From the IMG/VR virus record IMGVR_UViG_3300030385_001830, positions 1 to 52,330 of that record: a DNA stretch of 52,330 bases; one strand, written 5' to 3'. The DNA comes from a virus. Below the pieces are notes generated by a model. The model did no database searches, was not told the DNA's origin, and saw only the letters and a list, made by a program, of their open reading frames with translations. Position 1 is the first letter of the stretch; every line of letters starts with the position of its first letter. The translations under genes and the position numbers were made by a program. Of this stretch, positions 33,974-45,511 are shown one piece after another.

Positions 33974-34180
33974 ATGGAAGAATTTTATACAAAAAACGAA
34001 GCTATTGGCAATATTAGTAAGATAATTGATGCTTTAGAGCAGTCGCAAGAAATTATGAAAACATTAAATCAGCAGACCCAAGACTTAGCTGAAGAGATAT
34101 TCAGGATAGGCGCAAAGGTGAAAGTAATGTCTAAACAAATAGATTCCCTAATGGGAGAGGAAATCCATGACAGCCATTAA
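33974..34180 (+). CDS. Small coiled-coil protein
   Basis: 68 aa. Nearly all helical with heptads (ISKIIDALEQSQEIMKTL, then DLAEEIFRIGAKVKVM). Leader CACAGAAAGG precedes it, and its end overlaps the ribbon-helix-helix gene. Possible partner of that protein. Confidence 0.65.
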   Translation: MEEFYTKNEAIGNISKIIDALEQSQEIMKTLNQQTQDLAEEIFRIGAKVKVMSKQIDSLMGEEIHDSH

Positions 34181-34379
34181 AGGAAAAAACGTGCGGGTGG
34201 ATGATGAAACTTACGAGAAAATACACCAACTCGCCAAAGAAGAAGAAAGAACTCTATCCATGATTATCCAACGCGCAGTAAGGGAATACTGGAATAGCGA
34301 TCACTTAGGGGATCCAACGCTGGAGAGAGTAGAACCCAGTATTGAGAAAGATACGACAAGCTATATTGGATATGATTAA
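34167..34379 (+). CDS. Ribbon-helix-helix (CopG-like) DNA-binding protein
   Basis: 70 aa. The strand KNVRVDDETYEKI followed by helices HQLAKEEERTLSMII and RAVREYW is the Arc/CopG/MetJ-like fold, which binds short palindromes as dimers. It is a good candidate for the protein that binds the palindromes at the accessory promoters; inference only. Confidence 0.75.
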   Translation: MTAIKGKNVRVDDETYEKIHQLAKEEERTLSMIIQRAVREYWNSDHLGDPTLERVEPSIEKDTTSYIGYD

Positions 34380-40726: not shown

Positions 40727-41263
40727 ATGCCCTTACCCAAACAAACTCATAAACCCCATCTAGAAGTTGTGGCAAATCCCCGCACTGAAAAAAAGATAAC
40801 TCCCAAGCAAGAGGAATTTGTAAGGATTTATTGTTGCGAGGATGTAAGCCAGACAGAAGCTGCGGTACGGGCTGGATACTCTAAGAAGTCTGCACACGCC
40901 ATAGCATCCCAATTATTAAACGGCACTAGATATCCCCACGTAGTAGCTAGAGTTTATGAGGTAAAAAATGAGCTGGCACACAAGTATGAAGTCACATTTG
41001 AAAACCATGTAAAAAAACTAGCAGACATAAGGGATCTAGCATTACGTGAAGGATCATACGCTGCTGCTGTAGCGGCTGAAAAGAACAGAGGACAGGTAGC
41101 AGGTTTATACATTGATCGTAAAGAAATCTTGCACGGAAAGATAGATACTATGACAAGGCCAGAAGTATTGAGGGAAATACAAAAGCTGCATGAGGAATAC
41201 CCTGTGTTGAGTGCAGTGACGGAAAGCAACCTAGTGATAGAAGGGGAAGTTGATAAAACCTGA
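40727..41263 (+). CDS. terS: Terminase small subunit
   Basis: 178 aa. An N-terminal HTH, ITPKQEEFVRIYCCEDVSQ then AAVRAGYSKKSAHAIASQLL, is the Terminase_2-type DNA-recognition domain; the C-terminal half is helical. It selects the packaging site and hands DNA to TerL. Unusually, TerL begins about 2.8 kb away; between them are an endonuclease, two related unknown genes and GATC arrays. Confidence 0.9.
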   Translation: MPLPKQTHKPHLEVVANPRTEKKITPKQEEFVRIYCCEDVSQTEAAVRAGYSKKSAHAIASQLLNGTRYPHVVARVYEVKNELAHKYEVTFENHVKKLADIRDLALREGSYAAAVAAEKNRGQVAGLYIDRKEILHGKIDTMTRPEVLREIQKLHEEYPVLSAVTESNLVIEGEVDKT

Positions 41264-41675
41264 AAGCAAATTATGGCGAAAACTGAGGGAAGGCACGCGT
41301 GGGCAAGATGTGTTTTGGACAAGGTTGGAGTCATGGGCTGTACCTGGAGTCCCAGATCTGCATGGTATTGTAAATGGTTACTCTTTTTGGCTAGAACTCA
41401 AGCTGCATAAGTTAAAGTCCTTAAATTATATAAATCTAAGTCCGCATCAAATAGCGTGGCAAATAAGATATAGTGGGAATAGTGGATGTGTGTGGAACTT
41501 GGTTGAGCATCCTTCCTCAACCACTATAAATATATTTAGAGGGGAGAGGGCCATTGAGATAGGCCCAAAGAGGGAGAGGAAAGACCCATTGGTAGTGGAC
41601 TGGAGCTCATGTGCCCCGTACGATTGGAGGGGAATGATGGCATATATCGTCTCCCATCCACTCCCCAAAAAATAG
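41250..41675 (+). CDS. VRR-NUC-like PD-(D/E)XK endonuclease
   Basis: 141 aa from TTG 41250 after AGGGG; coupled to terS by overlap. D36 in GVPDLHG and E49-x-K51 in FWLELKLHK form the PD-(D/E)XK core, the compact phage VRR-NUC form that often cuts branched DNA. It may process packaging concatemers together with the terminase. Start codon is unusual but no ATG fits. Confidence 0.8.
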   Translation: MIKPESKLWRKLREGTRGQDVFWTRLESWAVPGVPDLHGIVNGYSFWLELKLHKLKSLNYINLSPHQIAWQIRYSGNSGCVWNLVEHPSSTTINIFRGERAIEIGPKRERKDPLVVDWSSCAPYDWRGMMAYIVSHPLPKK

Positions 41676-41695
41676 AGACCAAAAAATGAGAGAAG

Positions 41696-41838
41696 TCGTG
41701 TCTACTCGCCTCTAGTCGTGTCCCTTCGTATCTTGTCAACTCCCCGTGGATCATGGACGATGGTCATTGATCGATTACGATCGCCATGGATCGCCATGGA
41801 TCGCCATGGATCTTGGCCGATCGCCCACGATCGGTTAA
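41696..41838. repeat. GATC array 1, 10-bp periodic
   Basis: GATC occurs at 41769, 41779, 41789, 41799, 41809, 41819 and 41829, exactly every 10 bp; 41749 is in phase and 41759 is one base off (GATG). The core unit is GATCGCCATG, three exact copies. A TCG-based 10-bp rhythm continues leftward to 41696. Confidence 0.92.
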
Positions 41839-41848
41839 CCGTGGGCAT

Positions 41849-41883
41849 AAAAAAGTCCCGCTTGCTAAACTAACAAGCGAGAC
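41849..41883 (-). terminator. Terminator of the leftward unknown gene
   Basis: On the minus strand a nearly perfect 10-bp stem (GTCTCGCTTG with CAAGCGGGAC) followed by six T. Confidence 0.85.
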
Positions 41884-41905
41884 CGTGTAGTGGCAAAATA
41901 GTCAG

Positions 41906-42496
41906 TTAGGCTTTAGAAGCCATAACGGTTATAGGTTTAACGACCAATTGCACCAAGGACTTGCCGTAGAAAAACTTGCTACGATCCTTTGTGGTATTGG
42001 TCCCGTTTAGCAACATGAGAAGCGTATTGCCATCCCCAATTGTTGCTGTGGACTCTGCTACTTTACCACCAGTAGCTTTGATGGCTACATTTATGTGGTT
42101 GAGTCTACGGCTGGCGGTTTTGCCACCTGCGACTGGTTCCCACTTGAGCTTATCAAATGCTTTGCTCTTGTTGCTGGGTATACCGTCTTTAGGTAGCTGG
42201 ACTCCAAATAGCCAGCAGCGTAACTGATTAGCACGAGTTGTAGTGCTAGCTGCGAACATACCCGCAATCTTAGCGGTATTGGCCCAATTTTCAGCAGTAA
42301 TACCTAGTGAGTCAAACAGTGGTGTAGTTTCTACCACCACATTGGCTTGAAGGTCTGCTGCATTGTCTTTAACAAATTTTGCTACACAAGAACCGCTGAC
42401 CAATTTGTTGCCATTGGTTGCGAAATTCAGGGTAGCCCCGTCGGTAAGGTTTAGAGCCTTTACCAGAGGCTTGGCGGTTACTTTCTGTTTAACCAT
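41906..42496 (-). CDS. Unknown protein, paralogue A of a pair between terS and terL
   Basis: 196 aa. Its C-terminal part (TGGKVAESTATIGDGNTLLM, then SLVQLVVKP) matches the gene at 43127 (HTGGKV, NGNTLAMLLSGTNT, IVQLVVKP), so they are paralogues in opposite orientation. Basic Lys-rich N-terminus. No family recognised. It has its own TTGTGG-N17-TAGTAT promoter and terminator, and GATC arrays on both sides. A DNA-binding or virion role is possible but not shown. Confidence 0.75.
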   Translation of the reverse strand: MVKQKVTAKPLVKALNLTDGATLNFATNGNKLVSGSCVAKFVKDNAADLQANVVVETTPLFDSLGITAENWANTAKIAGMFAASTTTRANQLRCWLFGVQLPKDGIPSNKSKAFDKLKWEPVAGGKTASRRLNHINVAIKATGGKVAESTATIGDGNTLLMLLNGTNTTKDRSKFFYGKSLVQLVVKPITVMASKA

Positions 42497-42539
42497 AGTC
42501 GTGTACCTTATGTTTGACTATTTTTGCCACTACAAATTC

Positions 42540-42568
42540 ATACTAACATGTACCACATCGTACCACAA
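42540..42568 (-). promoter_or_regulatory. Promoter of paralogue A
   Basis: On the minus strand TTGTGG, a 17-bp spacer and TAGTAT, the same -35 as at 40411 but without its palindrome. Confidence 0.6.
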
Positions 42569-42604
42569 CAACTGATTACCTAATTACCGAGCGGTTCCCC
42601 CAAG

Positions 42605-42850
42605 ATTGAGACCCAAAATTGAGACGCCGAACTAAGATGGAGGGAGTAGGAGTGACTATACATGTATCTATATATGTTACTTATGGTTGATCGTGGCCGA
42701 TCTTGGCCGATCGCCATGGATCATGGGCGATCTAGGGTGTTGCCTCTTTCCCCCTATCCCCTCTATTGTATCTAGTGCTGTAGGTTGGATAGTCGTTGTG
42801 CCATACTACAATTGTAGCAACTAACCCCAAAAAGGGAGACCCAAAATATG
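42605..42850 (+). promoter_or_regulatory. Gene-free control region with repeated leader motifs and array 2
   Basis: The 350-bp gap between 42496 and 42848 holds the motif GAGACC-CAAAA-TGAGAC at ~42608 (also at 41675 and 42838), GATC array 2 at 42689-42732, and a promoter with the perfect palindrome CTACAATTGTAG (42806-42817) over CATACT (42802-42807). Its -35 region is weak. Confidence 0.6.
42689..42732. repeat. GATC array 2, 10-bp periodic
   Basis: GATC at 42689, 42699, 42709, 42719 and 42729, exactly every 10 bp, sharing GATCGCCATG with array 1. Confidence 0.92.
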
Positions 42851-42946
42851 AGACAGCTCCTCTATTATACTCTGTTATCACTCGCGTTTATTACGCTCGC
42901 TATTAGCTCCGCCATCATCTGGTGGTTGGTAGCACCATGGGTATAG
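42848..42946 (+). CDS. 32-aa membrane peptide behind operator promoter
   Basis: ATG 42848 behind AAGGGAG, with the palindrome promoter upstream. One membrane helix (LLSLAFITLAISSAIIWWLV). Too short for most gene callers, but promoter, ribosome site and hydrophobic core are all present. Possible pore or regulator peptide. Confidence 0.55.
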   Translation: MRQLLYYTLLSLAFITLAISSAIIWWLVAPWV

Positions 42947-43126: not shown

Positions 43127-43738
43127 ATGCAAAAAGTAAATACACAAAAAGCAATTACAGCCGGTATAGCTAACCTTAACAGCAATGCCATTTATACATT
43201 ACCTGCTAGTGGTTTAGCTAATGGTGCAAACATTGCAACCTATGCAACTAATAACTGCAATAATAAACTTAGCCAAATAGCCGTGGTAATAACACCATTT
43301 GGTAAGGGTTTAATAAAAGGGTTACCCGTACCCGCTAATGGTTTAAGTGGTAACGCTGCTATTAATGCTTACATGCTGGCGTTTAAAAACTTAAACAATG
43401 GCATGTTTGCGGTTGGCAGCACGGTACGTTGTTACCAGTTTTTGTGTTACATGTTAGGTGTTGTGCCTAACAGTAGCAAAAACAATAAAAGTAAAAAGTG
43501 GGCTAATTTACAGGCTGCTAATGCTTTGGGTACATTAGGTGGTAACAATGCTAGTAGTAGCTTAGGGCATATTGGCACAGTGGTTGGGCACACTGGCGGT
43601 AAAGTTACCAGTGGCAACATTGCCAATGGCAACACACTTGCTATGTTGCTAAGTGGCACCAACACTATTAAAAGCCCGCAACATGCTTTTTTTAAAAAGC
43701 CCATTGTGCAACTGGTAGTTAAGCCTAACCTTAAGTAA
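43127..43738 (+). CDS. Unknown protein, paralogue B of a pair between terS and terL
   Basis: 203 aa from ATG 43127 with an AGG site; an upstream GTG at 43067 is in frame but would place promoter DNA in the gene. Asn/Gly/Ala-rich, mostly beta or disordered (ASGLANGANIATYATNN), C-terminal HTGGKV and IVQLVVKP matching paralogue A. Unknown function; the terminator at 43761 makes it a single-gene unit. Confidence 0.72.
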   Translation: MQKVNTQKAITAGIANLNSNAIYTLPASGLANGANIATYATNNCNNKLSQIAVVITPFGKGLIKGLPVPANGLSGNAAINAYMLAFKNLNNGMFAVGSTVRCYQFLCYMLGVVPNSSKNNKSKKWANLQAANALGTLGGNNASSSLGHIGTVVGHTGGKVTSGNIANGNTLAMLLSGTNTIKSPQHAFFKKPIVQLVVKPNLK

Positions 43739-43880: not shown

Positions 43881-44041
43881 CCCCCCCCCTGAGACATATA
43901 AGGGTACCCGTCAGGGTGGCCTTATACTGTTTACCATGATTCGTGGGAGAGCAAAAAATTATTAACAGGGGTACCCCCCTAGACACTGAAAGTGGCCCTA
44001 GGTTCATTGCTGTGTGGAAAATTTCGATATATGATTTTTAT

Positions 44042-45511
44042 ATGGATGATAAAGAAATTGAGAAAGTCCCAGAGGAGCGATTGAGGAGTTATGCCCAGTT
44101 GCTTGAGCGAGCGCAGCAGTTGGATCTGGCGGCGGCGGCGCGATTGGGATTTATGGAGTTTGTGTTGTTGGCGTGGCCTGAGTTTATAAATGGACGCCAC
44201 CATAAGATAATGGCTGATAAGTTTAATAAGTTGGCGGCTGGAAAGATTAAGCGCTTGATAGTTAATATGCCGCCGCGCCATACGAAGAGTGAGTTTGCCA
44301 GTTATTTGTTACCGGCATGGATGATGGGTAATAGACCCCATTTGAAGATAATGCAGACGACGCACACGGCAGAGTTGGCTTTTAGATTTGGCCGAAAGGT
44401 GCGTAATTTGATGAATACGGACCATTATAAGCAGATATTTCCTGGAGTGAGTTTACGCGCAGACAGCCAAGCGGCGGGACGTTGGGAGACAAATGCGGGT
44501 GGTGAGTACTTTGCGGCAGGAGTAGGTGGTGCGGTTACGGGCCGTGGTGCGGATTTGTTAATAATAGACGACCCCCACAGTGAGCAGGATGCCCTAAGCC
44601 CAAGTGCCTTGGAAAATGCTTACGAATGGTATACAAGTGGCCCGCGCCAACGGCTCCAGCCAGGAGGCAGTATAGTAATAGTAATGACCCGCTGGGCAGA
44701 TAATGACCTCACCGGTAAGCTGGTAAAGCAACAGGCAAGAGACATCCTAGCCGACAAATGGGACATTGTAGAGTTCCCAGCTTTAATGCCCGACGATAAA
44801 CCGCTCTGGCCCGAATTCTGGAAGAAGGAAGATTTAATAGGCGTAAAGGGTAGTTTAAGTGTAATCAAGTGGGAGGCCCAGTGGCAACAGAACCCCACCA
44901 GTGAGCTGAGCGCGATACTAAAACGCGATTGGTGGAAAAAGTGGAAACACAAGGAAATCCCATCCTGTGTTTACTTAATGCAAAGCTACGACACCGCATT
45001 TAGCAAGAAGGAATCCAGCGACTACAGCGCAATAACCACATGGGGCGTTTTTTATCCAGAGGAAGATGGCCCCCCAAATATCATGCTATGCGATGCACGA
45101 CGAGGACGTTGGGATTTTCCAGAGTTACGCCGCATCGCCTTTGAAGAGTACAAATACTGGGACCCAGAGATAGTGCTAATCGAAGCAAAAGCCAGCGGTA
45201 CCCCCCTAATACAAGAGCTACGCACCATGGGCATACCTGTAACCGAATACAGCCCAAGCCGAGGAAACGACAAGATGTCACGGGTTAATTCAATTGCCCC
45301 GTTATTTGAAACTGGGTTAGTATGGGCACCGGATACCCGCTGGGCTGAAGAAGTAATAGAAGAATGTGGTGCTTTTCCATCGGGAGAGTTCGATGATTAT
45401 GTGGACACTGTTACCCAAGCACTGCGCCGCTTTAGAGAGGGTGGTTTTATAACCCACCCCGAAGATTACAAAGACGACTTCTCGGTTCCTAAGCAGAGAG
45501 TATATTACTAA
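44042..45511 (+). CDS. terL: Terminase large subunit
   Basis: 489 aa from ATG 44042 (the frame extends to GTG 43943, adding 33 poorly conserved residues). ATPase: VNMPPRHTKSE (Walker A variant), DLLIIDDPHSE (Walker B), VIVMTRWADNDL (coupling). Nuclease: MQSYDTAFSKK, IEAKASGTPLIQEL and DDYVDTVTQALRRF. The packaging motor and end-cutting nuclease. Stop overlaps the portal ATG. Confidence 0.97.
   Translation: MDDKEIEKVPEERLRSYAQLLERAQQLDLAAAARLGFMEFVLLAWPEFINGRHHKIMADKFNKLAAGKIKRLIVNMPPRHTKSEFASYLLPAWMMGNRPHLKIMQTTHTAELAFRFGRKVRNLMNTDHYKQIFPGVSLRADSQAAGRWETNAGGEYFAAGVGGAVTGRGADLLIIDDPHSEQDALSPSALENAYEWYTSGPRQRLQPGGSIVIVMTRWADNDLTGKLVKQQARDILADKWDIVEFPALMPDDKPLWPEFWKKEDLIGVKGSLSVIKWEAQWQQNPTSELSAILKRDWWKKWKHKEIPSCVYLMQSYDTAFSKKESSDYSAITTWGVFYPEEDGPPNIMLCDARRGRWDFPELRRIAFEEYKYWDPEIVLIEAKASGTPLIQELRTMGIPVTEYSPSRGNDKMSRVNSIAPLFETGLVWAPDTRWAEEVIEECGAFPSGEFDDYVDTVTQALRRFREGGFITHPEDYKDDFSVPKQRVYY

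What the first reader, a model, noticed from the sequence alone, without database searches (positions are those of the whole stretch)
41696..42732. GATC arrays with exact 10-bp spacing on both sides of an unknown gene
Array 1 has seven GATC at 10-bp steps (41769-41829) with two further in-phase positions upstream, one degenerate; array 2 has five (42689-42729). Both share GATCGCCATG. Exact helical phasing puts every site on one face of DNA, which points to cooperative protein binding, Dam/SeqA-like control or a packaging or recombination site. They flank an unknown gene and lie between terS and terL.
Basis: partly seen in the sequence, partly recalled or inferred. Interest (0 to 1): 0.75.

Follow-up and report, generated by a model that had tools for sequence, protein, structure and literature searches.

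The report
Ten-base binding-site array beside packaging genes
A marine phage carries, between the genes that start DNA packaging, two rows of short DNA sites placed exactly one helix turn apart; relatives keep the 10-base spacing and the place while the site changes from GATC to GANTC to GANNTC, which points to a protein array reading one site per turn, most likely to mark the phage DNA for packaging.

Summary
GATC stands at nine 10-bp steps (eight exact, one degenerate) at 41749-41832 and at five at 42689-42732; 1000 shuffles never gave a run above two. The arrays are conserved. In 52 non-redundant relatives, GATC pairs between a nuclease-like gene and terL lie 10 bp apart 170 times and 9 or 11 bp apart never. 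The site is YGATCR; the rest of the spacer is free.

An unbiased k-mer scan of relatives without GATC arrays found GANTC, then GANNTC, at the same place and the same 10-bp step. The feature is therefore a 10-bp array of paired YGA/TCR half-sites whose inner gap (0, 1 or 2) switches between lineages. That is hard to reconcile with a Dam/SeqA mark, and no Dam-type methylase was found.

The arrays lie only at this locus. They stay when gene A (41906) moves, so they are not A's operator.

Best reading: a packaging-initiation (pac-like) site read by the SPP1/SF6-type small terminase (about 0.45). Against it: one clade with nearly the same TerS helix-turn-helix has no array, and TerS does not track the site class cleanly. 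Main rival: the very basic A/B proteins. No binding protein is shown.

The parts
41749..41832 (.). Array 1: nine positions at exact 10-bp steps, eight GATC and one degenerate (41759 GATG)
42689..42732 (.). Array 2: five GATC at exact 10-bp steps
40727..41263 (+). Small terminase (TerS), Terminase_2 family; helix-turn-helix region related to phage SF6 G1P
41250..41675 (+). Small nuclease-like gene (PHROG 2165 and 93; weak RecU, E 0.096; VRR-NUC-like motifs by eye). Array 1 starts 77 bp after its last codon
41906..42496 (-). Gene A: 196 aa, basic (pI 10.0), member of a family with no Pfam match and no significant PHROG match; removable cargo between the arrays
43127..43738 (+). Gene B: paralogue of A (33% identity), basic (pI 10.2), next to terL
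43943..45511 (+). Large terminase (TerL)
41675..41692 (+). GAGAC..GAGAG direct-repeat box, 74 bp before array 1; kept in close relatives
42608..42625 (+). The same box, 81 bp before array 2
42836..42854 (+). Third copy of the box, upstream of gene B, no array after it

Best explanation
The arrays are a sequence-specific nucleoprotein assembly site in the packaging module. Each 10-bp unit carries a pair of inverted YGA/TCR half-sites, so all units face one side of the helix and a multi-subunit protein reads one unit per helix turn. The protein most likely to do so is the small terminase, an SPP1/SF6-type protein whose relatives form rings of helix-turn-helix domains. The array would then act as a pac-like signal that selects phage DNA and positions TerL, perhaps with the neighbouring nuclease, for the first cut. 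Shown: array, pitch, conservation, class switching, uniqueness per genome, place between the nuclease-like gene and terL, independence from gene A. Inferred: that a protein binds; that it is TerS; that the outcome is packaging.
For: Spacing is strictly 10 bp: 170 pairs at 10 bp, 101 at 20 and 58 at 30, with none at 9 or 11. In loci chosen by TerL alone, outside the pattern scan, it is 49 against 0. The 6-bp spacers are nearly free (81 kinds in 134), with only a Y before and an R after GATC, so repeat slippage alone is not the cause. Relatives keep pitch and place with GANTC or GANNTC. In 25 related records every triple-GATC hit lies at this locus; GANTC and GANNTC pairs cluster there too, with few strays elsewhere. 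The array stays when A has moved and the moved A has none. TerS matches SF6 G1P at E 1.9e-8 over the DNA-binding domain, the type for which a ring of HTH motifs recognising pac has been studied (PMC4737164). P1 pac is a precedent: seven TGATCA/G hexamers recognised by its pacase (PMC10028697; spacing). Three related contigs have matching ends (77-126 bp) yet are cut at different points relative to terL, as expected for permuted, headful-packaged DNA. TerS residue 55 is S in the GATC class and N in nearly all GANTC/GANNTC members, including the predicted S in L124, whose nuclease gene groups with the other classes.
Against: L052, L054, L055 and L059 have nearly the same TerS helix-turn-helix as the GATC class but no array. 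L079 (GANTC) has the recognition helix of the GANNTC class, and L057 (GANTC) keeps S55, so TerS sequence does not predict the class cleanly. [quoted passage not shown] Array length varies from 3 to 9 steps. The circular contig ends are also compatible with circular intermediates or other packaging types. No cut site, footprint or virion end is known.
Confidence: 0.45

Rival explanations
1. The basic A/B proteins bind the arrays in trans and build an architectural or segregation complex there; the arrays are their cognate sites, not promoters' operators.
For: A/B is found in all 22 of the related IMG/VR records searched, usually two copies, and not in the three cultured relatives without arrays. 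It is strongly basic: median pI 10.2, net charge +12. It evolves fast, as the site class does. In most loci a member sits next to an array.
Against: Array-less L052, L055 and L059 also carry two copies. Relocated A genes have no array. No DNA-binding fold could be recognised.
Confidence: 0.2
2. The arrays are operators or activator sites: a host or phage regulator binds upstream of the strong promoters in this interval (gene B, sometimes gene A).
For: Promoter-like sequences follow the array in several relatives, some with 10-bp-phased A-rich repeats before the -35 box (read by eye).
Against: A functions from other places without an array (L046, G001, G002, G004). In the window array 1 lies beyond A's terminator-like hairpin, at A's 3' end. 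Distance from array to promoter varies. Operators of a general regulator would be expected elsewhere in the genome; none are seen.
Confidence: 0.17
3. The arrays are part of a replication origin (iterons plus AT-rich DNA).
For: Phased sites, AT-rich stretches between array 2 and gene B, one locus per genome.
Against: The replication genes lie 10-20 kb away; base skew follows gene direction and marks no origin here; no conserved initiator was recognised.
Confidence: 0.1
4. The arrays are an epigenetic element: adenine methylation of GATC (Dam-like) or GANTC (CcrM-like) is read by a SeqA- or GcrA-like protein.
For: GATC and GANTC are the two classic methylation sites, and P1 pac uses Dam sites (PMC10028697).
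Against: The third class, GANNTC, is not a known site of this kind. No D12 methylase in 19 records and N6/N4 methylases in only two. Host methylation cannot be excluded.
Confidence: 0.07

Closest known systems
Phage P1 pac site (PacA/PacB)
   Same: Several GATC-centred hexamers (TGATCA/G) in two groups; here YGATCR in one or two groups; near terminase genes
   Different: P1 sites are irregularly spaced (7, 12, 15 and 12, 11, 28 bp), lie inside pacA and depend on Dam; here the step is exactly 10 bp, intergenic, and the core changes to GANTC/GANNTC
SPP1/SF6 pac and small terminase G1P
   Same: TerS is homologous in the DNA-binding domain; repeats at the packaging region; ring of HTH domains
   Different: SPP1 pac spans the terS start with a few longer boxes and no 10-bp array is described in the paper read here; specific reading of the repeats has not been shown in vitro (PMC4737164)
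Iteron arrays of ribbon-helix-helix partition or repressor proteins (ParR, Omega, MetJ; from general knowledge)
   Same: Tandem palindromic sites at about helical pitch bound cooperatively
   Different: The only RHH (CopG-type) gene found, 34167-34379, is above cut-off in the window only, with a weak match in one near relative and one cultured phage
oriC/SeqA-type GATC clusters (from general knowledge)
   Same: Several GATC on one helix face
   Different: Pitch kept while GATC is replaced in relatives; no Dam gene

Membership tests
P1-type pac site | Multiple TGATCR hexamers | tested here: met
   Site consensus YGATCR over 172 sites; literature PMC10028697
P1-type pac site | Lies within the small terminase gene | tested here: not met
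   Arrays are intergenic, after the nuclease-like gene and before terL
P1-type pac site | Dam-methylated GATC required | tested here: inconclusive
   No Dam-type gene in the phages; relatives use GANTC/GANNTC; host methylation unknown
SPP1/SF6-type pac site | Cognate TerS of the G1P type | tested here: met
   phmmer to 3zqp/4zc3/2cmp, E 2e-8 to 4e-8; PF03592
SPP1/SF6-type pac site | Overlaps promoters and start of terS | tested here: not met
   Array 1 starts about 490 bp after the terS stop; no array upstream of terS
SPP1/SF6-type pac site | TerL cuts here; headful packaging | not testable with these tools
   Needs virion-end mapping; circular overlaps in three relatives only fit it
SeqA/Dam regulatory cluster | GATC itself is the conserved element | tested here: not met
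   GANTC and GANNTC replace GATC at the same pitch and place
RHH iteron site | Conserved RHH protein encoded with the site | tested here: not met
   RHH_1 above cut-off in 1 of 25 records
Operator of gene A | Array stays with the gene | tested here: not met
   Relocated A genes lack arrays; arrays remain without A

The most novel reading that the evidence does not exclude
The arrays are the natural footprint of a small-terminase ring that wraps DNA like a nucleosome, one helix-turn-helix contact per helix turn, and so gains sequence specificity from many weak half-sites. The inner gap between half-sites (0, 1, 2) has switched repeatedly between lineages while the 10-bp pitch, set by the ring, stayed fixed.
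Probability: 0.25. Interest if true: 0.85.

Novelty: new variant of a known kind. Interest (0 to 1): 0.62.

Why it matters
How small terminases recognise their own DNA is an open question; a 2022 review says that neither wrapping nor threading models explain sequence specificity (PMC9611059). A set of marine phages with a strictly phased site array that changes its core but not its pitch would give a ready comparative system to test this. If the binder is instead the A/B family, it gives a first role to an unnamed basic protein family found throughout this phage group.

Tried and rejected
Chance or composition: rejected by shuffles. Simple tandem-repeat slippage: rejected as the whole cause, since spacers vary; some units are plain copies. 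Operator of gene A: rejected. My own argument that L057 and L124 have arrays with no A/B-type gene in the interval was withdrawn: a divergent B-like gene is there. RHH protein 34167-34379 as general binder: rejected, not conserved. Phage Dam: not found. TerS residue 68 as a perfect class marker: rejected, L061 breaks it. Defined genome ends at the array: near-complete contigs are cut at varied places. Fold of A: confident model (pLDDT 84) but no structural match. Literature searches returned no report that I could recognise as describing such arrays. Genome-contig scan for the host: only three distant TerL relatives, without arrays.

Full report
WHAT IS THERE. The window is an IMG/VR virus record of 52,330 bases. 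Its terL is nearest, among cultured phages, to those of Pelagibacter phages HTVC027P and HTVC023P, phage 023Pt_psg01 and phage DSL-LC04 at about 60% protein identity. Gene order at the locus is terS (40727-41263), a nuclease-like gene (41250-41675), array 1 (41749-41832), gene A on the minus strand (41906-42496), array 2 (42689-42732), gene B (43127-43738) and terL (43943-45511). GATC is not enriched in the window as a whole; the spacing is the signal, and 1000 dinucleotide shuffles never exceeded a run of two against the observed seven.

CONSERVATION. A scan of IMG/VR for five GATC at 10-bp steps gave 47 stretches. Twenty-six of them carry relatives of genes A/B near the array, and L005 carries the same terS and nuclease-like gene; most of the others are near-identical tandem repeats. 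In 52 non-redundant loci I took the interval from the nuclease-like gene to terL and counted distances between GATC sites: 170 at 10 bp, 101 at 20, 58 at 30, 37 at 40, and 0 at 9 and 11. Some loci had been chosen by the pattern, so I repeated this with loci found by TerL only and not by the pattern scan: 49 at 10 bp, 0 at 9 and 11. Over 172 sites the only other preference is a pyrimidine before and a purine after GATC.

CLASS SWITCH. I then asked, without assuming a motif, which k-mers are phased at 10 bp in relatives lacking GATC arrays. The top answer was GANTC (26 pairs at 10 bp, none at 9 or 11, background 0.1), then GANNTC. Runs of these sit at the same places, about 20-200 bp after the nuclease-like gene and again further on, up to about 1000 bp after it. 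Each genome uses mainly one class, and whole records show the arrays at this locus, with only a few stray single pairs elsewhere. On the TerS tree GANTC needs at least two separate changes on well-supported branches. The common feature is thus YGA-(0, 1 or 2)-TCR repeated every 10 bp. A possible fourth class (GANNNTC in L066, L068, L071) rests on a few pairs only and is not claimed.

NOT TIED TO GENE A. In L046 gene A (96% identical protein) lies upstream of terS with no array, and its single array carries the left flank of window array 1 (89.6% identity) and the right flank of window array 2 (72.6%): the arrays have recombined and the slot is empty. In G001, G002 and G004 gene A also lies outside the interval without an array, and in L061 another 108-aa gene fills the slot. 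A B-type gene is probably always in the interval: L057 and L124, which I first thought lacked it, hold a divergent one.

WHICH PROTEIN. Genes shared by six array-bearing genomes include TerS, the nuclease-like gene, TerL and replication and structural genes, besides A/B. TerS is the one recognised sequence-reading protein: its region 18-81 matches phage SF6 G1P (E 1.9e-8). Its recognition-helix region differs between the GATC class and the rest, and one prediction (S55 in L124) held, but L057, L061 and L079 do not fit cleanly and an array-less clade has nearly the same helix. A/B proteins are basic (median pI 10.2) and remain a real rival. A CopG-type RHH gene at 34167-34379 is not conserved. 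Dam-type methylases are absent in 19 records.

HOW IT MOST LIKELY WORKS. Site units one helix turn apart put every unit on one DNA face; a multi-subunit reader can bind one unit per turn and gain specificity by avidity. The small terminase of this type forms rings of helix-turn-helix domains that recognise pac (PMC4737164), and how such rings gain specificity is described as unresolved (PMC9611059). P1 pac, with seven TGATCA/G hexamers, is a functional precedent (PMC10028697), but in the P1 record I measured irregular spacing. Three near-complete relatives have overlapping ends and different cut points, which fits permuted, headful DNA but does not prove it. The step from array to protein to packaging is inference, and I put it at about 0.45.

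NOVELTY. Literature searches returned no report that I could recognise as describing such arrays; the library holds only open papers. I file it as a new variant of a known kind (phased protein-binding array, probably pac-like). The part that has no parallel known to me is a fixed 10-bp pitch with an evolving half-site gap.

Noticed in passing
window 41906-42496 (-) and 43127-43738 (+): Two paralogous basic proteins (A, B) of a family with no Pfam match, no significant PHROG match and no structural match; found in all 22 related IMG/VR records searched, two copies in most of them; A has a confident model (pLDDT 84).
   Followed up: partly
window 41675-41692, 42608-42625, 42836-42854: An 18-19 bp box (GAGAC, 13 bp, GAGAC/G) precedes arrays 1 and 2 by 74 and 81 bp, with nearly the same distances in L016, L008 and (array 1) L046; a third copy has no array.
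   Followed up: partly
window 34167-34379 (+): CopG-type ribbon-helix-helix gene, over the Pfam cut-off; of 25 related records only two others show a weak match.
   Followed up: yes
L012:1175-1210, L029, L072: Upstream of gene A's promoter-like sequence, GATTATAAAA-type repeats run at 10-bp steps up to the -35 box, half a turn out of phase with the GATC array.
   Followed up: no
L018:1687-1730 and L010:408-451: In a more distant TerL relative (59% identity, L018) an array of five identical GATCCGCCCC units lies about 0.6 kb before terL; L010 holds the same array in reverse.
   Followed up: no
L066, L068, L071 (interval between nuclease-like gene and terL): GANNNTC pairs at 10-bp steps, a possible fourth class, together with GATC pairs.
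   Followed up: no
G001:19582-20145, G002:11227-11796: N6/N4-type DNA methylase gene in two of 19 relatives, both with GATC arrays.
   Followed up: no
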